DNA of 32,646 bases, taken from NCBI GenBank assembly GCA_020053945.1, contig JAGVME010000090.1:1-32646 (forward strand), read 5' to 3'. The notes beneath the pieces were generated by a model that saw only the letters and a list, made by a program, of their open reading frames with translations, was not told the DNA's origin and made no database searches. The DNA is from Gammaproteobacteria bacterium (GTDB taxonomy: Bacteria; Pseudomonadota; Gammaproteobacteria; Ga0077554; Ga007554). Positions 1 through 32,627 of the stretch are shown piece by piece (position 1 is the first letter of the stretch; each line of letters opens with the position of its first letter). The translations under genes were made by a program, and so were the position numbers.

Positions 1-769
1 CAACTACCCTTGCACCGTTTTTGCACCAGTCACTAACCTTGGCCGACACAAATTTTCGGCGTAGTCAGCCAGGTGATCAGCGTTCAGATGGGCGTACCGG
101 CGTACCATTTCGACCGATGACCAGCCAGCCATCTCCTGGAGCGCGTACAGCGGCGTTCCGGCTTGGACAAGATGCCCAGGTATGGCGGAGATCGTGGAAC
201 TTGAAGTCTTCAATGCCGGCTCGCTTGAGAGTTTTGCGCCAAGCGTGGTTGTTGGCGCGGGTGACGCGGTTGCCCTGGTAAGTGAACACCCAGCGGTCAT
301 GTTGGCCAAGTTGACGACGGAGGATCAGCACGGCTTCGGCATTGAGAGGCACGGTAATGGCTTTACGCGCTTTGGCCTGGTCAGGATGGATCCAGGCGAT
401 GCGGCGCTCAATATCTACCTGCGACCATTCCAGCCCGGGGATATTTGATTCTCGCAAACCTGCCGCCAACGCAAAACCGGCCATGGCCGTCAGGTGAGGT
501 GGTAGCGCCGTTAAAAGACGTTCGGCTTCTTCGCGTGTCAACCAGCGAATGCGGCGCTTGGATTCGGCCAGCATACGCACAGTGGGGGATTTATCCAGCC
601 ACGTCCATTGATTGGCAGCGCAACGCAGAATCGAACGAATGAGGGCAAGCATACAATTAACACGTGCCGTGGATGCGCCATCATCAAGTTTGGCTTGTGT
701 GATGTTCTCCAGGCGATGGGGGGTGATATCGATAAGTTGAATATCGTGCAGGTAATGATAGAGCCAGCG
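1..769 (-). pseudogene. Tyrosine recombinase (phage-type integrase) remnant, N-truncated and frameshifted
   Basis: Read on the minus strand, this encodes most of a phage-type site-specific integrase: the end of the core-binding domain, then the catalytic domain. The catalytic Arg (GLRES), Lys region (QAKARKAI), HDLRH box and tyrosine (MVRRYAHL) are all present, but the frame shifts just after HDLRHTWAS near position 182. The C-terminal part with the nucleophile Tyr continues in another frame down to about position 4. The N-terminal part is missing: at about 769/770 the integrase reading runs straight into a transposase fragment. A single minus-strand reading frame (77-1579) therefore fuses the two by accident. 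Seen: motifs and frame break. Inferred: inactive. Confidence 0.8.
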
Positions 770-1500
770 GAGCCTCTTGCAAAAGTCCCCGAATGGACAA
801 ATACGGCCCGGCCTGGACGACCTTGAAGGCTGCTTTTTTGGAGCCGCTCGGCGTGCTTCGACGATTACGGCGGTGGAATCACGTATTTCTCCAAGGGTGG
901 GCGATGCCTTTCCCAACCCACGCTTTTCACGGGGACAAAGAATGGTTTTGCAGGGGTTGCGCTCATTGCACAATCGCATCAACTGATCCGCCGTCAGGGC
1001 CAAGAGGCCGAACATCAGATGGCCCATCACCTTGGCGTGTCCCTTGGCCCAGACATTTTTGCCGCCGAACTCGTCCTTGAGCCGCGCATTCATCCGTTCT
1101 GCTACGGTGCGTTCGTTATAACGCACCGCCTCGGCGGGGTCGAATTCGATCTTCTCGCCGCCGCGCGGGTTGTGGTCGATCCGGGGGATGTGGCCCCGAT
1201 TGTGGCTGTCTTCCCGTAGCGAGACGCTGCAATAGGCCGCGTCCATGACCTCGTAGAGGTGCGTCACCCGACCTGCCGTCATGCGGGACAGGGGAACCGC
1301 AGCCTGACTGTCATGCATTGAGGCGCGGCTCAAGAGCGCGCTCACCGGCACGCCGCCGTCGGCGGTATCCAGGTGCAGCTTGTAACCCTTCCAGCTCACC
1401 TTGTAGCCTTGGGCATTGCACTTCGTGCCTCGATCGCAGGCGCGGGGCAATTCTTCGAGCATTGTGTCCAGGGTCTGCCCGCGTTGCCGCTCGATACGCC
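770..1500 (-). pseudogene. IS4-type DDE transposase fragment (N-terminus lost)
   Basis: The minus-strand translation holds the C-terminal half of a DDE transposase. An Asp lies in KLHLDTADGG, a second in VMDAAY, and the Y-(2)-R-(3)-E-(6)-K signature of IS4-type enzymes is present in YNERTVAERMNARLK. The probable IS end is the GAGCCTCTTGC sequence at 770-780, next to the interrupted integrase. The other end is missing: upstream of TMLEELPRACDRG the sequence meets the IS630-type remnant at about 1500, and roughly the first third of a typical transposase is absent. The exact left boundary is approximate. It is probably inactive. The IS family call rests on the signature alone. Confidence 0.7.
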
Positions 1501-1502
1501 AC

Positions 1503-1796
1503 CTCAATGCCAAGATCGTCATGGTGCTTGATGGCGCTGGTCGGCACGTCAGTAAGTTACTCAAACCGCCGCCGAACATGTAACTGCTGCCTTTGCCACC
1601 CTATGCCCCTGAACTCAATCCGGTCGAGCATGTGTGGGACGAAGTATGAGAGAAGCACTTCCATAACCGCGTCTTCGATAGTCTTGACGCCCTGGAGGAT
1701 CAACTCGAAGTGGCCTTGCGTACCTTTGAGGGGAATGCACCCAGGGTCAAGTCCATTGTGGCTTGGGAATGGATTATTAATGCTTTATTGAATTAG
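1503..1796 (+). pseudogene. IS630-type transposase C-terminal remnant with two in-frame stops
   Basis: Frame-3 translation from 1503 gives about 97 codons typical of the IS630/DDE_3 C-terminus. They include VMVLDGAG (second Asp of the triad), then LLPLPPYAPELNPVEHVWDE (catalytic Glu region), and end WIINALLN-stop. Two in-frame stops break it: a TAA at 1581 just before LLPLPPY and a TGA at 1647 just after VWDEV. The N-terminal half is missing, cut where the oppositely oriented IS4-type fragment begins. This is a nonfunctional relic. Because both IS remnants end at about 1500, one probably inserted into, or recombined with, the other. Confidence 0.8.
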
Positions 1797-1891
1797 AAAT
1801 TGAATAAGACATTAAAAACGGGTCGAAACTATAGCACAAATAAGGCTATTTTTATAGAATAATCAATTTGTTAGGTGTTTTTCAGGGGCGA

Positions 1892-2731
1892 CTATTTAGC
1901 TAAGGCAGGCGCGGCGTGGCCGGTAGGCACATATTTTGACCAATCATATCGCGCATCGCCAAATACCAGAAACGAAGGATTAAGCAGGGATTCCTTGGTG
2001 TTGTAGCGTAACGGCCGCAGGCCGGTATCTGTAAGCTGGCCACCGGCTTCCTCGACGATGCATTGCGCCGCGGCCGTATCCCATTCGGAGGTGAGCCCGA
2101 GGCGGGGATAAATATGTACTTTACCTTCGGCCACCAGGCAAGATTTGAGTGAACTGCCAATGCTAATCACCTTGCAGTCACCGACATTGGCAAGAAAAAT
2201 ATCAAAATCATTGCTGCGGTGTGACTGGCTCCCCGCCACAATAAGCTGTTCACCATTCCAGGTGCGCGTATGGATGCGGGAAGCGGCCGGGGTCTTATCC
2301 GCTTCTTGTTTGTATGCCCCCTGCCCTTGGCGGGCGTAATAGCAAATGCCGGTAACAGGCACATACACTACGCCCAATACCGGTTTGTGATTTTCAATCA
2401 AGGCAATGTTTACGGTGAATTCGCCGTTGCGCTTGACGAATTCACGCGTGCCATCCAGCGGATCCACCAGCCAGTAACGGTTCCAGGTGGCGCGGGTGGC
2501 AAAGGGCAGGGCGGCGGATTCTTCGGATAACACCGGCAACTCCGGCGTCAGTTTTTCCAGGCCGGCGACAATGATGTGGTGCGCGGCCATGTCCGCTTCG
2601 GTGAGTGGGGAAAGGTCATCTTTTTTGGCTACGCTAAAATCCTGCGCATATATTTTCATGATGGCATGGCCGGCTTCGATAGACAAGGCGATTGCGGTAT
2701 CAAGGAGTACGCCAGCATCTTTAACGGTCAT
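1892..2731 (-). CDS. cysQ: 3'(2'),5'-bisphosphate nucleotidase CysQ
   Basis: A 279-residue member of the inositol-monophosphatase-like, Mg-dependent, Li-sensitive phosphatase family. CysQ removes the 3'-phosphate from 3'-phosphoadenosine 5'-phosphate, the by-product of sulfate assimilation, and is usually associated with the inner membrane. Metal-binding motifs are visible: SPLTEAD near residue 40, SEES near 70, the WLVDPLDGTREF box around residues 87-98, and EWDTAAAQCIVEEAGG near the C-terminus. The length is slightly above the usual 245-270 because of a short C-terminal extension. The start ATG overlaps the end of nudE by 11 bp, so the two are co-transcribed. It is the last gene of the run headed by thiC. 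Confidence 0.9.
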   Translation of the reverse strand: MTVKDAGVLLDTAIALSIEAGHAIMKIYAQDFSVAKKDDLSPLTEADMAAHHIIVAGLEKLTPELPVLSEESAALPFATRATWNRYWLVDPLDGTREFVKRNGEFTVNIALIENHKPVLGVVYVPVTGICYYARQGQGAYKQEADKTPAASRIHTRTWNGEQLIVAGSQSHRSNDFDIFLANVGDCKVISIGSSLKSCLVAEGKVHIYPRLGLTSEWDTAAAQCIVEEAGGQLTDTGLRPLRYNTKESLLNPSFLVFGDARYDWSKYVPTGHAAPALAK

Positions 2732-3269
2732 TTTTCAATAATTCCTTTACTATAAATAGCGCCGCAATGCTGCGCGCTTCGGTACAATCGTCGCATTGCA
2801 ATAATTCGTTAAGCTGGCTTAATTTCCACGGCACTACCTCAATTTCTTCAGGTTCATCACCGATGGCGGTGCAGGGATACAAATCTTGCGCCAGTATCAC
2901 GTGGGTGGTGTGGCTCAAATAGCCCGGCGCGACGGTGAGCGAGGTGATGTGGCGCAATGTGTGGGCGGCATATCCGACTTCTTCCATGATTTCACGGTTG
3001 GCGGCTTCAATGACGCTTTCGCCATGTTCAATGCGGCCTTTGGGCAAAGCGAGTTCATACCGTTGTACACCCGCCGCGTATTCGCGGATCAGCAGTACCG
3101 TGTCAACATCCAGCATCGGCACGATCAATACCGCGCCGTGCGCTGAGCCGCGCAGCCGTTCGTATTGCACTGTCACGCCATTGGAAAACTCCAGGTCTAA
3201 CTGCTCGACATGGAAGAGCCGTGTTTTAACGAGGGTGGATGCGCCTAATATTTTGGGAAGTTTCCGCAT
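2721..3269 (-). CDS. nudE: NUDIX hydrolase, ADP-compounds hydrolase NudE
   Basis: A 182-residue Nudix enzyme, close in length to E. coli NudE (186), which cleaves ADP-ribose, Ap3A and NADH-type substrates. The full Nudix box GX5EX7REUXEEXGU is visible from GRIEHGE through REIMEEVGY. The ALPKGRIEHGE context and the N-terminus MRKLPKILG match the NudE subfamily. I chose the ATG at 3269 because the family starts with this Met. An upstream ATG at 3314 would add 15 unrelated residues overlapping the YkgJ gene. Neighbours are the YkgJ-type gene upstream (8 bp gap) and cysQ downstream (11 bp overlap). The nudE-cysQ pairing is common in gammaproteobacteria and fits nucleotide housekeeping. Confidence 0.88.
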   Translation of the reverse strand: MRKLPKILGASTLVKTRLFHVEQLDLEFSNGVTVQYERLRGSAHGAVLIVPMLDVDTVLLIREYAAGVQRYELALPKGRIEHGESVIEAANREIMEEVGYAAHTLRHITSLTVAPGYLSHTTHVILAQDLYPCTAIGDEPEEIEVVPWKLSQLNELLQCDDCTEARSIAALFIVKELLKNDR

Positions 3270-3277
3270 GGATAGTG

Positions 3278-3679
3278 TTAATCCGCCCCCCAGCGCTTGA
3301 AGCGGTTTTTGCAATAGCGCAACAGTGATTCGTAGCCATCAAAAAACAGTTCAAAGCCGTCTTCTGCCGACGCGTCATATTCGCAATAATCATTGGAATA
3401 GACGCGGCATACCTGGGGGCGGGTGTCGTAAATGCCGCAACGGCCGTCTTTTTGCAGGTGATTGCAGCGGCTGTTTACCAGCAGAAACCAGCCGTCGGTG
3501 TCTTTGTAATATTGTACGCCCTGGTGCGAGATTTGCCACAGCATATGGTCAAAATCATTTTTGGCGCGCGGTGTGGGCACCTGCTGGGTAATGTAGGTGC
3601 AACACTTCGAATTAGTGCAAAATCCGCATTTGGTTTCGGGTGTGATGCCGACAGGATGGATGGGTATGATGTGCGCCAT
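3278..3679 (-). CDS. YkgJ-family cysteine-cluster protein (putative metal-chelating domain)
   Basis: A 133-residue small protein with the Cys-cluster signature of the YkgJ (CxxCxxxxCC) family. CGFCTNSKCC lies near residues 19-28, followed by CNHLQKDGRCGIYDTRPQVC, giving about eight conserved cysteines with the R-P-x-x-C context. The family is predicted to bind zinc or iron, possibly as a cluster, but has no firmly established reaction. There is no signal peptide, so it is cytoplasmic. It lies 11 bp after the small unknown gene at 3691 and 8 bp before nudE, in the middle of the minus-strand run headed by thiC. The family assignment is firm. The biochemical role is unknown. Confidence 0.85.
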   Translation of the reverse strand: MAHIIPIHPVGITPETKCGFCTNSKCCTYITQQVPTPRAKNDFDHMLWQISHQGVQYYKDTDGWFLLVNSRCNHLQKDGRCGIYDTRPQVCRVYSNDYCEYDASAEDGFELFFDGYESLLRYCKNRFKRWGAD

Positions 3680-3690
3680 AGCCTAGTAAT

Positions 3691-3993
3691 TTAATCCTCA
3701 TCATCCATTGAAGGTGGCCAGCCGAGTGTGCGTGCCTTGGCAATGGCAGCCTCGTAAATGCGTGTGTGGCGTTCGCGCAACTCGGGTGGCAGGTTACTTA
3801 CCATGCTTCCATGGGGTGCCCAGGCCGCCACCACTTTTTCGTTGAGTGCGAGCATCTGGGCATGTCCCCAGCCTTTGCCATCTTCACTTTCCGGGAGTAT
3901 GCCGAACACCCAGGCATCTTTGATCAAGGCACCGGCGGGTGTCATGCCGCCGTAAGTGTCTTCGTGTATGCCCATATAGCGAATGTCTTTCAT
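3691..3993 (-). CDS. Conserved-looking small protein downstream of thiC, function unknown
   Basis: A 100-residue acidic protein. The ATG at 3991-3993 is separated by one base from the thiC stop, which points to translational coupling. An upstream ATG in the same frame (4113) lies wholly inside thiC and gives an Arg/Trp-rich shadow sequence, so I rejected it. I see no signal peptide, membrane segment or known catalytic motif. Notable stretches are YMGIHEDTYGG at the N-terminus, a central Trp-containing helix region and an acidic tail SMDDED. I do not recognise the family. Its position between thiC and the YkgJ gene suggests co-expression under the TPP riboswitch. Confidence 0.7.
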   Translation of the reverse strand: MKDIRYMGIHEDTYGGMTPAGALIKDAWVFGILPESEDGKGWGHAQMLALNEKVVAAWAPHGSMVSNLPPELRERHTRIYEAAIAKARTLGWPPSMDDED

Positions 3994-3994
3994 C

Positions 3995-6011
<2,017 letters not shown>

Positions 6012-6052
6012 TGTATCATCAATATGATTCACGGTACTACCGCAAAAGTTAT

Positions 6053-22605: not shown

Positions 22606-22760
22606 AGAGCCTATTCCAACTCTCACTGAAGGGCGCATCGCGGTGTTGCCATGATATATAAAGGCGGGCTCAAAATGCTCATGTACTGCATGTACACTCC
22701 GCTTTTTCGCCCGTTTCCGCCTTGCGCCGCATCCCTTGAGTGAGAGTTGGAATAGGCTCT
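22606..22760. repeat. Intergenic palindromic repeat, intact copy A (155 bp)
   Basis: The ends AGAGCCTATTCCAACTCTCACT (22606-22627) and its exact complement (22739-22760) form a 22-bp inverted repeat. The interior starts GAAGGGCGCATCGCGG and holds GGGCTCAAAATGCTCATGTA and CCGCTTTTTCGCCC. The last base is part of the stop codon of the YheT-type gene. A related copy B, split by the OLD-family gene, lies at 29697-31770. Nothing else is evident in 22473-22605. Confidence 0.85.
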
Positions 22761-28535: not shown

Positions 28536-29213
28536 ATGGAATCTAGCTATATGATGCCAATTTATGGTTATAATCAGGGCATGTCGAACATAGATCCCCA
28601 GCCAGTATGCATGGAGATACCTCCTGCATTTGATGAGCAAGAAACACGTTTAATTGTTTGGTTGGAGAAAATAGCCGCCAAAGATGAAAATGCCTTGGCC
28701 GCGTTTTACGATGCCACGGTAAACCGCGTGTATGGCCTTGCGCTGCGTATCACGCGCGCATCCCCTGTGGCGGAGGAAGTAACATCCGATGTTTATTGGC
28801 AAGTATGGCAACAGGCGGACCGTTACGACGCCACCCGGGGTAAAGTACTTACGTGGCTCCTTACCTTATGCCGCAGCCGCGCGCTTGATACGCTGCGCCG
28901 CCGCGATTCCGCGGAATCCTGTGCTGAACCCGAACTGCTGATTACCGGCGCCCATTCCAGCGATGACGATCCATTGGGTTTATTGCTCATGGTAGAGCGC
29001 GATAACACCCTGCATGCCGCACTCAAAACACTCGATTCGACCCCGCGGCAATTATTGGCGTTAGCTTTTTTCAAAGGTTTGAGCCACCAGGAAATCGCAG
29101 ATTATACCGGAATGCCTTTAGGCAGCGTAAAGAGCGTATTGCGCAATGCAATGGGGACATTAAAACCCCTATTGCATCACAGTGTTCTTCCTTTCCGAGG
29201 GGAATTATCATGA
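28536..29213 (+). CDS. ECF-type RNA polymerase sigma factor
   Basis: Up to 225 residues. It has sigma region 2 (AFYDATVNRVYGLALRITRASPVAEEVTSDVYWQVWQQADRYD, with KVLTWLLTLCRSRALDTLRRR) and region 4 (LKTLDSTPRQLLALAFFKGLSHQEIADYTGMPLGSVKSVLRNAM). There is no region 3, which places it in the extracytoplasmic-function group. The start is unsure: ATGs at 28536, 28551/28554 and 28581 are possible. The N-terminal extension before about 28600 is not conserved-looking. The ATGA overlap with the cupin gene fits a sigma/anti-sigma pair of the RpoE-ChrR type. The likely target, by position, is the divergent DUF4331 operon and itself. Confidence 0.9.
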   Translation: MESSYMMPIYGYNQGMSNIDPQPVCMEIPPAFDEQETRLIVWLEKIAAKDENALAAFYDATVNRVYGLALRITRASPVAEEVTSDVYWQVWQQADRYDATRGKVLTWLLTLCRSRALDTLRRRDSAESCAEPELLITGAHSSDDDPLGLLLMVERDNTLHAALKTLDSTPRQLLALAFFKGLSHQEIADYTGMPLGSVKSVLRNAMGTLKPLLHHSVLPFRGELS

Positions 29214-29692
29214 CGCGCCTGGAGAATCCTAATCAAGACCTGGGTGACGAGGACATCATCAGCAATGACCTGATGGCAATCCTGCTGGATGCCGCTCCTT
29301 CGGTAGCCCCGCCCAGTACGTTGCGTGCCAAGGTATTGGCGCGGATCAATGGCCCAGCTTCAATGAAAGAACTGATTACCCTGCGCGGCAATGAAGGCAA
29401 TTGGATACAAGTCCGCCGCGGTATCGAGGTCAAGCTGTTATTCCGGGACCAAGATAGCAAAAGCCGCTCGTTCTTGATGCGCGTCCATGCGGGAGCCAGC
29501 TTTCCTGCCCATACGCATGATGGTGTCGAGGAGTGCCTGGTGCTGGAAGGTGAATTCAACATGGGAGATTTAACCTTGCGGGCAGGTGATTACCACCTCG
29601 CGCCACAAGGGGCAGTCCATACGGAGCTAACCAGCCGCACGGGAGCGCTGCTTTTTTTCCGTACCTCTGTTACTGAATATCCCTTCGGCTGA
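29210..29692 (+). CDS. ChrR-like cupin anti-sigma factor
   Basis: A 160-residue protein. The N-terminal about 50 residues (LMAILLDAAPSVAPPSTLRAKVLARI) resemble the anti-sigma helix bundle of ChrR-type factors. It has none of the H-x3-C-x2-C zinc ligands found there; its only Cys is in EECLVLEG. The C-terminal cupin is complete: motif 1 G-x5-H-x-H-x3-E-x6-G in GASFPAHTHDGVEECLVLEG, and motif 2 GDYHLAPQGAVH. By family knowledge it binds the sigma factor and releases it on a signal such as singlet oxygen or peroxide. The signal here is unknown. It is translationally coupled to the sigma gene. Confidence 0.85.
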   Translation: MTRLENPNQDLGDEDIISNDLMAILLDAAPSVAPPSTLRAKVLARINGPASMKELITLRGNEGNWIQVRRGIEVKLLFRDQDSKSRSFLMRVHAGASFPAHTHDGVEECLVLEGEFNMGDLTLRAGDYHLAPQGAVHTELTSRTGALLFFRTSVTEYPFG

Positions 29693-29696
29693 GTTA

Positions 29697-29747
29697 GAAC
29701 CCGTTTACGATCTCGCTGAAGGGCGCATTGCGGCGTTACCCTGATAG
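29697..29747. repeat. Palindromic intergenic repeat copy B, left part
   Basis: CGTTTACGATCTCG with flanks (29697-29723) is complementary to the right arm at 31744-31770. GAAGGGCGCATTGCGGCGTTACC CTGATAG aligns base for base with copy A up to 22657. The repeat is then interrupted by the cassette-like insert. Confidence 0.8.
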
Positions 29748-29770
29748 ATGGGCTTCATAAAGGATCGTCT

Positions 29771-31537
29771 GTGAAGATTGAATCACTTTCCATTTCTAAC
29801 TGGCGTTCGATCAAGCGCCTAGATATTGCGTTTCAGGATCTGATGATATTCATCGGACAGAACAATCACGGAAAGTCGAATGTCCTTTCCGCGCTGCTCT
29901 TCTTTTTTGGAGAAATAAAACCTCAAGACCTGGATTTCAATAAAGGCTCACAAGAATTGTTTGTTGAAATCACTTTCTGCGACCTAGATGACACAGACAA
30001 GTTAACCTTCAAGAAATACGTGACGGCGGATGGAAAGATAAAGGTTAGAAAATTTGCATACGTTGGTGGCAATTTCGAGTATCGAGGATACATACAGAAT
30101 CCCGTAGATGATTGGTTGCGTGAAGCGAATTCCTCAAATTACTCAAAGAGAGAAGTTGCTCAAAGCTTGCCGTTTTATCCATTTTTGCCAGCCTCTGGCC
30201 GTCTTTCAAAACAAGATATCGTAGATGCTCAAACTAAGTACATCGAACAAAATATTGGAACCGTCGCACTTAACTTTGAAATCGAGGAAACAAACTTCCT
30301 TGGGTTGAAGTCGGTTGCCAAGGGTATTTTTGGAGACATCTACTTTATCCCGGCAGTCAAAGACGCAACGGATGACTTTTCGTCAAAAGAAGCAAGCGCA
30401 TTTGGGAAGCTGTACTCAAATATTATCGAGTCAATGTCTGTCAACAATCCCGATTGGAATGAAACAAAAATTAAATTATCCTCGCTATTCGGTACGTTAA
30501 ATCGATTGAATAAAGATGGCGAAAGCAATCCGAACAGGCCAAAGGAATTGGCAGCTTTCGAAAGAGCACTTGGTTCCGAACTCAAAACATGGGGCGCGGA
30601 AATTGACGTCGAAGTCCTCCCACCAAATATCGACGATGTTTTCAGAGCTAATACACAAGTCTGGGTTAATGACGGAGTAAGGACCGATATTCGCCGCAAG
30701 GGGCACGGCCTTCAAAGAGCGCTCACTTTTGCTCTAATTAAGGTTATCTCCGACAGCCTGAAGGCGGAACGAGAAAAGGCCGCACCAGAACAAAATACGA
30801 CGCGAACAGCTTCGGCTTCCACATATTTTATACTTGAAGAACCAGAGCTTTATCTTCACCCGCAAGCGCAACGCGCGTTGTTTGATTCGTTGGTTGCACT
30901 ATCTGAATCCAAGAATCAAGTGGTACTGTGTACCCACTCCAGCGCCTTGATTGATGTTGAGCGGTACAAGTCAATTTGCATCGTAAAGAAAGACTCGGAT
31001 ATGATCGGAACCCAGATTTGTCAATGTACTGACGACATATTTACTGGTGATAAAAAGAAAGACTTTAACCTTTCTTACTGGATCAACCCGGACCGAAGCG
31101 AACTGTTTTTCGCAAGGAAAGTTCTTCTTGTGGAAGGTCCCACAGATAAGACACTCATACCGTTACTTGCAAAGCAGCTAGGTGTGTTTCGGTTCGATCA
31201 TACAGTTGTCGACTGCGGATCGAAAGACAATATTCCTCTCTACTGTCAGCTACTAAACAAATTCAAAATACCTTATGTGGCTGTTTACGACAAAGATCAT
31301 CAGACTTCCAAAACCCCGGATGGCGTCGCTTCCGCTAACAAGAGTAGCGCCAATATTGAGGCCGCCATTGACCAAGGAACCGGCGCCAGCATCGTCCTCG
31401 TAAACGACATAGAGGAAGAAGTAGGAATAGTTTCTGGCGAGAAAAGCAAGCCTTATGTGGCACTAACACATATTGCATCGCCTGGCTTCAAAATCTCAGA
31501 TGGCCTGTCTGCAAAGGTCAAGTCAATGTATCAATGA
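29771..31537 (+). CDS. OLD-family ATP-dependent nuclease (ABC ATPase plus Toprim)
   Basis: A 588-residue protein starting at GTG with AAGGA six bases upstream. The N-terminal ABC/SMC-like ATPase shows Walker A GQNNHGKS (residues 29-36), a signature region GHGLQRALTFALIK, Walker B YFILEEPELYLHPQAQ and the H-loop VVLCTHSS. The C-terminal Toprim nuclease shows LLVEGPTDKTLIPLL (catalytic Glu) and VYDKDH (Asp-x-Asp). This is class 1 OLD architecture, as in phage P2 OLD and Gabija GajA. No UvrD-like helicase (GajB) or other partner is adjacent, so it would act alone. Base composition is visibly more AT-rich than the flanking genes, which with the cassette setting points to transfer. Defence function is inferred. 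Confidence 0.88.
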   Translation: MKIESLSISNWRSIKRLDIAFQDLMIFIGQNNHGKSNVLSALLFFFGEIKPQDLDFNKGSQELFVEITFCDLDDTDKLTFKKYVTADGKIKVRKFAYVGGNFEYRGYIQNPVDDWLREANSSNYSKREVAQSLPFYPFLPASGRLSKQDIVDAQTKYIEQNIGTVALNFEIEETNFLGLKSVAKGIFGDIYFIPAVKDATDDFSSKEASAFGKLYSNIIESMSVNNPDWNETKIKLSSLFGTLNRLNKDGESNPNRPKELAAFERALGSELKTWGAEIDVEVLPPNIDDVFRANTQVWVNDGVRTDIRRKGHGLQRALTFALIKVISDSLKAEREKAAPEQNTTRTASASTYFILEEPELYLHPQAQRALFDSLVALSESKNQVVLCTHSSALIDVERYKSICIVKKDSDMIGTQICQCTDDIFTGDKKKDFNLSYWINPDRSELFFARKVLLVEGPTDKTLIPLLAKQLGVFRFDHTVVDCGSKDNIPLYCQLLNKFKIPYVAVYDKDHQTSKTPDGVASANKSSANIEAAIDQGTGASIVLVNDIEEEVGIVSGEKSKPYVALTHIASPGFKISDGLSAKVKSMYQ

Positions 31538-31538
31538 A

Positions 31539-31619
31539 GCCCAACAACGCCATAACCGGCAGTGAAAAGCAGTGCGACGACGAAGGAGCGCCGCTTTTCA
31601 CTGCCGGTTATGGCGAGCG
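31539..31619 (+). other. attC-like site / stem-loop directly after the OLD-family gene
   Basis: GCCCAAC (31539-31545) starts one base after the stop codon and fits RYYYAAC. A 23-bp perfect stem follows: CGCCATAACCGG..AAAAGC (31548-31570) with its exact complement 31593-31615, around a 22-base loop. AGCG then leads to the junction, giving GCG|AT as in typical attC ends (GCG|TTRRRY). Unusual for attC: the stem shows no extrahelical base and the R' box reads GATGGGC. It could otherwise be a plain transcription terminator, but it lacks a T-run. Confidence 0.6.
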
Positions 31620-31770
31620 ATAGGGGTGGCCTCAAAAGTGCTCACATACTACCTGCATGCTGCGCTTTTTCGGCTCCCTGTTATATAAAGGGAGCCTTGC
31701 CTTGGGAACCCTTCGCTTTGCTAAACCCTTCGCTGGCGCTCTTCCCTTGATCGAGATCGTAAACGGATCC
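31620..31770. repeat. Palindromic intergenic repeat copy B, right part
   Basis: ATAGGGGTGGCCTCAAAAGTGCTCA and TGCGCTTTTTCGG match copy A from 22658 onward. An extra segment follows with GGCTCCCTGTTATATAAAGGGAGCC (a hairpin) and two ACCCTTCGCT units. The last 27 bp are the inverted partner of 29697-29723. The element ends directly at the rsmA stop codon. Confidence 0.75.
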
Positions 31771-32547
31771 TTACAGAGGAACATTGCTCAGCGCGGCAAA
31801 TTGCTCCAAGCTCAACGTTTCGGCGCGCCATGAAGGGTCGATTCCTTGCGCGCGAATCTGGTCTTCGCTCACTAAACCTTTCAAGGTATTGCGCAAGGTT
31901 TTGCGCCGTTGCGAAAACGCCTGTTTGACGACGGCAGCAAAACGGGTGGTGCTGGTGACCTGTACGTGTGGTTGCGTATGCGGCACTAAACGCACCACCA
32001 TCGACTCCACTTTTGGCGCGGGCGCAAACGCCTCCGGGCCGACCAAAAACAGGGGGTCGACATAACAGTAATACTGCACCATGACGCTGAGCCGCCCGTA
32101 ATCAGCATCACCCGGCGTGGCGGCCATGCGCTGCACAACTTCTTTTTGCAGCATGAAATGCATGTCTTGCACACACTTTACTTTTTCCAGCACATGGAAC
32201 AGCAACGGGGTTGAGATGTTGTAAGGCAAATTTCCGACCAGGCGCAACGGCCGCCCGTCTGTCGCCAGTGACGCAAAATCAAAACGCAGCACATCAGCGC
32301 TGTGCACGCGCAACTCACCTAATCCCTCGCACGCCCTTTGGAGCAAGGGTATCAAATCGCGGTCAAGCTCGATGACATCAAGAACGCCCGTTTCTTTCAG
32401 CAGATATTGGGTGAGCGCACCTTTGCCCGGGCCAATTTCAACGACATGCTGGCCAGGTTCAGGGCCCACCAGTGAAACAATGTGCTGAATAACACCCACA
32501 TCATGCAAAAAATTCTGGCCGAAGCGCTTACGTGCGGTGTGTGGCAT
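31771..32547 (-). CDS. rsmA: 16S rRNA dimethyladenosine methyltransferase RsmA (KsgA)
   Basis: A 258-residue SAM-dependent enzyme that dimethylates the two adjacent adenines in the 3'-terminal hairpin of 16S rRNA (A1518/A1519 in E. coli). Visible motifs are the N-terminal RKRFGQNFLHD, motif I VVEIGPGKGALTQYLL, the ELDRDLIPLL acidic loop, motif IV NLPYNISTPLLFH, and the C-terminal PAPKVESMVVRL, FSQRRKTLRNTLKG. The length is normal (about 260-275). In gammaproteobacteria it usually ends the lptD-surA-pdxA-rsmA operon, whose upstream members would lie beyond the window edge. Its stop codon directly abuts repeat copy B. Confidence 0.97.
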   Translation of the reverse strand: MPHTARKRFGQNFLHDVGVIQHIVSLVGPEPGQHVVEIGPGKGALTQYLLKETGVLDVIELDRDLIPLLQRACEGLGELRVHSADVLRFDFASLATDGRPLRLVGNLPYNISTPLLFHVLEKVKCVQDMHFMLQKEVVQRMAATPGDADYGRLSVMVQYYCYVDPLFLVGPEAFAPAPKVESMVVRLVPHTQPHVQVTSTTRFAAVVKQAFSQRRKTLRNTLKGLVSEDQIRAQGIDPSWRAETLSLEQFAALSNVPL

Positions 32548-32580: not shown

Positions 32581-32627
32581 ACCGCAGGGAGGATCACAGG
32601 GCACTGCCCTGTGATCCTCCCTGCGGT
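32581..32627. repeat. 47-bp near-perfect palindrome upstream of rsmA
   Basis: A 23-bp arm ACCGCAGGGAGG..GGGCA (32581-32603) is followed by one base and its exact complement (32605-32627). On the plus strand it is followed by AATTATTTT. It could end the upstream gene or process the rsmA transcript. It has no copy elsewhere in this window that I noticed. Confidence 0.85.

What the first reader, a model, noticed from the sequence alone, without database searches (positions are those of the whole stretch)
29748..31619. OLD-family nuclease carried as an integron-cassette-like unit inside an intergenic palindromic repeat
Aligning the repeat at 22606-22760 with the split copy at 29697-29747 plus 31620-31770 gives continuous homology across the junction (TGATAG|ATAGGGG against TGATAT|ATAAAGG). 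The insert is therefore exact and has no target duplication, unlike an IS. Its compact form (23-bp leader, one CDS, then GCCCAAC one base after the stop, a long stem-loop, end at G|AT) is cassette-like. Known integron chemistry (IntI cutting G|TT of attC, with secondary GWT sites) would explain both G|AT junctions. A lone defence nuclease spread in this way outside an integron would be notable.
Basis: partly seen in the sequence, partly recalled or inferred. Interest (0 to 1): 0.88.

Follow-up and report, generated by a model that had tools for sequence, protein, structure and literature searches.

The report
Defence-gene cassette outside its integron
A gene for a phage-defence type nuclease, packaged as an integron gene cassette, sits alone inside a short repeated sequence of a bacterial chromosome away from the integron, which looks like a natural case of an integrase dropping a cassette at an off-target site.

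Summary
A 1,872-bp unit (29748-31619) splits one copy of an abundant palindromic repeat. Other copies in eight genomes of the same family run through the junction point without interruption. The unit is built like an integron cassette: a 23-bp leader, one class 1 OLD-type nuclease ORF, then GCCCAAC one base after the stop and a long hairpin. When the ends are joined, the cassette start (G|ATGGGC) pairs with GCCCAAC at 6 of 7 positions. Homologues elsewhere are complete integron cassettes: three have perfect 7/7 R''/R' pairing plus attC-like sites. A Solimonas homologue starts G|TTGGGC, the exact partner of GCCCAAC. The window's own genome encodes an intact integron integrase with adjacent cassettes on another contig, and a second small cassette cluster holds a relative of the window's hairpin. 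All eight family genomes carry the integrase. Best explanation: IntI-mediated insertion of a cassette at a non-attI/attC G|AT site (an attG or secondary site). This mechanism is known, and so are integron-borne anti-phage cassettes, so this is a new member of a known kind. Caveats: GAT at both ends (a 3-bp duplication cannot be excluded), no extrahelical bases in the hairpin, no strain-level empty site, a fragmented MAG.

The parts
29748..31619 (+). inserted unit, reads as one integron gene cassette
   Evidence: flanks are two halves of one repeat; ends G|ATGGGC and ...GAGCG|ATAG
29748..29753 (+). cassette start; with G it forms R' GATGGGC (Solimonas homologue L070 has GTTGGGC)
29771..31537 (+). 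OLD-family nuclease, 588 aa, AAA_15 ATPase (Walker A GQNNHGKS) plus OLD-like TOPRIM
   Evidence: Pfam, PADLOC Old 2.6e-73, nearest solved structure 6p74 'Putative ATP-dependent endonuclease of the OLD family'
31539..31545 (+). R'' (inverse core site) GCCCAAC, consensus RYYYAAC
   Evidence: consensus as given in PMC12901181
31548..31615 (+). attC hairpin: long perfect outer stem, 28-bp arms 93% complementary, 12-nt spacer, no extrahelical base in the outer stem
29690..29747 (+). left half of the host palindromic repeat; ends TGATAG
31620..31774 (+). right half of the host palindromic repeat; starts ATAGGGG; outer arm pairs with 29693-29723 (84%) and overlaps the last bases (31771-31774) of the rsmA gene
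22606..22760 (+). intact copy of the same repeat family in the window
28536..29692 (+). sigma-70-type factor and ChrR-like cupin genes, co-directional and directly upstream; possible source of transcription (inferred)
   Evidence: Pfam
31771..32547 (-). rsmA (rRNA adenine dimethylase), downstream flank, convergent
   Evidence: Pfam

Best explanation
The unit is a single integron gene cassette carrying a class 1 (stand-alone) OLD nuclease. An integron integrase, most simply the one encoded elsewhere in this genome (contig C4), joined the cassette's attC site, cut at G|WT, to a G|AT triplet in the middle of a pre-existing palindromic repeat between chrR and rsmA. This target is neither attI nor attC; such targets are called secondary or attG sites. 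Shown here: the unit interrupts a repeat; its two ends are complementary in the way cassette ends are; homologues are cassettes; an intact-looking integrase and other cassettes are in the genome. Inferred: that IntI did it, that the cassette came as a circle from an integron array, that the single-base difference GTT to GAT arose by mutation or from the target triplet, that the gene is read from the upstream sigma/chrR operon, and that the protein defends against phage by ATPase-gated DNA cleavage, as described for OLD and Gabija GajA enzymes (family knowledge).
For: Continuous homology of repeat copies across the junction. R'' GCCCAAC and R' GATGGGC pair 6/7, against 1% of random flank pairs reaching 6 in the same search. 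Folded bottom strand of the joined attC gives -37.3 kcal/mol with the R box paired, -32.7 as inserted with the R box unpaired. Homologues L044, L045 and L047 are cassettes with 7/7 pairing, and L042, L043 and L076 have attC-like sites directly after the stop. Solimonas homologue L070 starts CTG|TTGGGCTTCTTGAGGATCGTCC before the same ORF, matching the window's G|ATGGGCTTCATAAAGGATCGTCT. IntI at C4:1449-2558: 490 bits against a cut-off of 265, confirmed by NCBIfam, with cassette-like units beside it. All 8 family genomes have an IntI above cut-off, with 0 of 14 control genomes matching at that E-value. C92 holds a DUF4160/DUF2442 unit and an attC-like site, plus a sister of this hairpin. IntI1 cleavage between G and A of GAT at secondary sites is described in PMC10127599.
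Against: The outer stem is a long perfect palindrome without the extrahelical bases usual in attC, which should weaken strand choice. R' is GAT, not GTT. The target G (29747) is T in most repeat copies, so the site either differed before insertion or was changed by it. No exact empty site from a near-identical strain. The genome is a fragmented MAG, so a misassembly cannot be checked against reads. Most OLD homologues show no cassette ends in my simple test, so the gene family is not confined to integrons.
Confidence: 0.87

Rival explanations
1. The unit is a cassette, but it reached this place by another route, such as illegitimate recombination or transformation with 3-bp microhomology (GAT), without integrase action.
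For: GAT is shared by both ends; the attC lacks extrahelical bases; a 3-bp match between arbitrary ends is not rare.
Against: Both breakpoints fall exactly at the cassette ends as defined by R''/R' pairing and by the L070 start. An illegitimate event would have no reason to respect G|WT at the cassette boundary. An integrase is present in the genome.
Confidence: 0.08
2. A transposon-like or hairpin-recognising element (IS200/IS605-like, IS110-like or a non-autonomous relative) carries the OLD gene, and the hairpin is its end.
For: One terminal hairpin, insertion in a palindromic repeat, at most 3 bp of duplication.
Against: No terminal inverted repeats, no hairpin at the left end, no transposase in the unit. 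Homologues share integron cassette ends, not IS ends.
Confidence: 0.02
3. The unit is the last relic of an integron array that once stood here and was deleted.
For: Clusters of attC sites without an integrase are common in bacteria (CALINs, general knowledge).
Against: Both flanks are the two halves of one repeat copy with no leftover attI, integrase or neighbouring attC between them, which points to a single insertion into the repeat.
Confidence: 0.03

Closest known systems
Integron cassette insertion at attG sites (Loot et al. 2024, doi 10.1038/s41564-023-01548-y; paper itself not held, cited through PMC12901181, PMC12444791 and PMC11200725)
   Same: cassette inserted in the genome outside attI/attC, at a short G-containing site
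   Different: here a natural chromosomal case, in a bacterium with its own chromosomal integron, and in a palindromic repeat
aadB cassette at secondary sites in RSF1010 and in an Acinetobacter plasmid (Recchia and Hall 1995; Segal and Elisha 1997, cited in PMC10127599)
   Same: single cassette precisely inserted outside an integron
   Different: resistance gene on plasmids there; defence-type nuclease on a chromosome here
Integron-borne anti-phage cassettes (Darracq 2025, Getz 2025, Kieffer 2025, cited in PMC12444791)
   Same: defence genes carried as cassettes
   Different: those lie in integron arrays; this one lies alone outside
Class 1 OLD nuclease (solved relative 6p74) and Gabija GajA
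   Same: N-terminal ABC-type ATPase and TOPRIM nuclease domain
   Different: no GajB, AriB or reverse transcriptase beside it, so a stand-alone OLD; sequence match to 6p74 is limited (best stretch 353-562)

Membership tests
integron gene cassette | single compact ORF with short leader and a 3' attC | tested here: met
   23-bp leader, one ORF, 82 bp from the stop to the end of the unit
integron gene cassette | R'' RYYYAAC complementary to the cassette's own first bases (GTTRRRY) | tested here: met
   GCCCAAC with GATGGGC, 6/7; control 1%. R' is GAT rather than GTT
integron gene cassette | attC bottom strand folds to a hairpin with paired R and L boxes | tested here: met
   z = -8.5 for the hairpin
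integron gene cassette | extrahelical bases in the attC stem (strand choice) | tested here: not met
   outer stem is perfect. Some described cassettes lack at least one of these bases and still move (PMC12901181), so I treat this as a weakened site and not as a defining failure of the cassette reading
integron gene cassette | homologous units in integron or attC contexts | tested here: met
   L042-L045, L047, L076
integron gene cassette | score with an attC covariance model | tested here: inconclusive
   no published attC model available; own alignment of 16 attC-like sites gave no consensus structure, so no model was built
attG / secondary-site insertion | target is not attI or attC, cut at G|WT, target halves otherwise intact | tested here: met
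   TGATAG|ATAGGGG; repeat halves contiguous in other copies
attG / secondary-site insertion | integron integrase available | tested here: met
   C4 IntI 490 bits
attG / secondary-site insertion | integrase-dependent recombination at this site | not testable with these tools
   needs a plasmid recombination assay
OLD nuclease, class 1 | AAA/ABC ATPase plus OLD-like TOPRIM, no partner gene | tested here: met
   neighbours are sigma factor, ChrR and RsmA
OLD nuclease, class 1 | anti-phage activity | not testable with these tools
   family knowledge only

The most novel reading that the evidence does not exclude
The abundant palindromic repeats of this bacterial family act as preferred landing sites for cassettes released from its conserved chromosomal integron, so the repeats scatter cassettes, defence genes included, over the chromosome.
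Probability: 0.1. Interest if true: 0.68.

Novelty: new member of a known kind. Interest (0 to 1): 0.45.

Why it matters
It is a clean natural example, in a bacterium with its own chromosomal integron, of a cassette leaving the array and settling alone elsewhere on the chromosome with a defence-type gene. The interrupted repeat supplies a family-wide reference for the empty site, which most suspected off-target insertions lack. It links two recent ideas: attG insertion and integrons as stores of anti-phage genes.

Tried and rejected
(1) An attC covariance model: MAFFT alignment of 16 attC-like sites aligned only the core sites and gave no consensus structure, so no model was built. (2) A pattern-plus-fold scan for attC over whole loci was too loose to be useful, because in arrays the neighbouring R' belongs to the next cassette; I replaced it with the own-end pairing test. 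(3) Looking for an integrase next to the Solimonas homologue L070: none in the locus, and its 3' part is lost at residue 346. (4) Plasmids: only remote relatives, the best nearly full-length ones below 30% identity. Viral contigs: one relative at 58%. (5) Close relatives of the OLD protein (E at most 1e-60): absent from all 55 related genomes searched. (6) Exact empty site next to rsmA: G001 has a different palindrome there, G002 only the rsmA-side arm of the same repeat and another gene, and the rsmA loci of the g2 genomes (G003, G005-G007) have another gene directly after rsmA. (7) Other split repeat copies: in the copies fetched and searched, none showed a large insert.

Full report
What is there. 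The window is the whole of contig C106 of a 2.14-Mb, 155-contig genome assembly, 85.6% complete. Between a sigma factor/ChrR pair (28536-29692, +) and rsmA (31771-32547, -) lies a palindromic repeat whose two halves, 29690-29747 and 31620-31774, are separated by 1,872 bp. The insert holds one ORF of 588 aa with an AAA_15 ATPase domain and an OLD-like TOPRIM domain. PADLOC ranks it first as 'Old' (2.6e-73), and the best match among solved structures is 6p74, an OLD-family enzyme. There is no partner gene of Gabija, PARIS or a retron beside it.

The insertion is real as far as sequence can show. Joined flanks were compared with copies of the repeat from the window's genome and its relatives. The alignment table has 49 rows crossing the junction, two copies being listed twice, and the copies run through it without such an insert; G003 alone gives about 40 matches. 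The best-preserved form is CCCTGATAT|ATAGGGG. The window copy reads TGATAG|ATAGGGG, so one base differs from most copies. Because GAT stands at both ends, the border is known only to within 3 bp, and a 3-bp duplication cannot be told from none.

The unit is an integron cassette. One base after the stop stands GCCCAAC, matching the R'' consensus RYYYAAC (PMC12901181). Then comes a hairpin with a long perfect outer stem (z = -8.5). When the ends are joined as in a free circular cassette, the first bases G|ATGGGC pair with GCCCAAC at six of seven positions. The same test on random flank pairs reaches six in about 1% of draws. The folded bottom strand of the joined site is -37.3 kcal/mol with the R box formed, and -32.7 as inserted, where the R box is not formed.

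Homologues decide the matter. Of 36 relatives found in bacterial and archaeal genomes, L044, L045 and L047 are complete cassettes whose ends pair 7/7, and L042 (84% identical), L043 and L076 have attC-like sites directly after the stop. The Solimonas relative L070 (84% over residues 1-346) begins CTG|TTGGGCTTCTTGAGGATCGTCC before its ORF, against G|ATGGGCTTCATAAAGGATCGTCT in the window. GTTGGGC is the exact complement of the window's GCCCAAC, so the likely ancestral cassette had the canonical GTT and the window's version differs by one base, which happens to match the GAT of the target. Many other relatives show no cassette ends, so the gene family also lives outside integrons.

The machinery is at hand. 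Contig C4 encodes an integron integrase of 490 bits against a cut-off of 265, next to recG, with cassette-like units on its other side. All eight genomes of the family have such an integrase. Contig C92 holds a second small cassette-like cluster: a DUF4160/DUF2442 unit, an attC-like site, a truncated ATPase fragment and a sister of the window's hairpin. No close relative of the OLD protein was found in the 55 related genomes searched, which fits a recent arrival.

Mechanism. IntI is known to use secondary sites with little sequence demand, and cleavage between G and A of GAT has been noted (PMC10127599). Insertion of cassettes at non-classical attG sites was described by Loot et al. 2024, which I could cite only through later papers. 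The present case fits: attC of the cassette joined to a G|AT in the loop of a small hairpin within the repeat. That IntI did this is inferred, as are the source of the cassette, expression from the upstream operon and the defence role.

Weak points. The attC lacks extrahelical bases. The G at the target is unusual for the repeat. The exact empty site was not found: G001 keeps rsmA and chrR adjacent but with another palindrome, and G002 keeps the rsmA-side arm of the same repeat next to a different gene. The assembly is a draft. No attC covariance model could be applied.

Verdict. The finding is correct in observation and largely in interpretation. It is a new member of a known kind, off-target cassette insertion, made more useful by the interrupted repeat and by the defence-type cargo. 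A role of the repeats as landing sites is not excluded but rests on one case.

Noticed in passing
window 32581-32627: A perfect 23-bp inverted repeat with a 1-base loop just upstream of rsmA; G002 has a different palindrome with similar words at the matching place (L099 about 5830-5900).
   Followed up: no
window 22606-22760 and relatives G001-G007: Abundant palindromic repeat family, 100-200 bp with long complementary ends (about 40 matches in G000 and in G003), shared by all genomes of the family; it looks MITE-like.
   Followed up: partly
L086 (C4) 1-2558: Chromosomal integron next to recG with repeated GTTAGGGTG-like words between integrase and first cassette; the first two units carry an unknown protein and an RNA ligase-like protein in reverse orientation.
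   Followed up: partly
G001-G007: Every genome of the family held has an integron integrase above cut-off, suggesting an old, vertically kept integron.
   Followed up: partly
L035 (C92) 600-1550: Cassette-like cluster without an integrase in the stretch read (1-4000 of an 8.1-kb contig): DUF4160/DUF2442 pair, attC-like site 948-1007, and a truncated ATPase reading through a half hairpin related to the window's attC.
   Followed up: partly
L070 6038-6315: The Solimonas OLD homologue is broken at residue 346 by what reads like the start of an IS3-type transposase gene.
   Followed up: no
window 5916-6018 (-): TPP riboswitch, above the Rfam gathering score.
   Followed up: no
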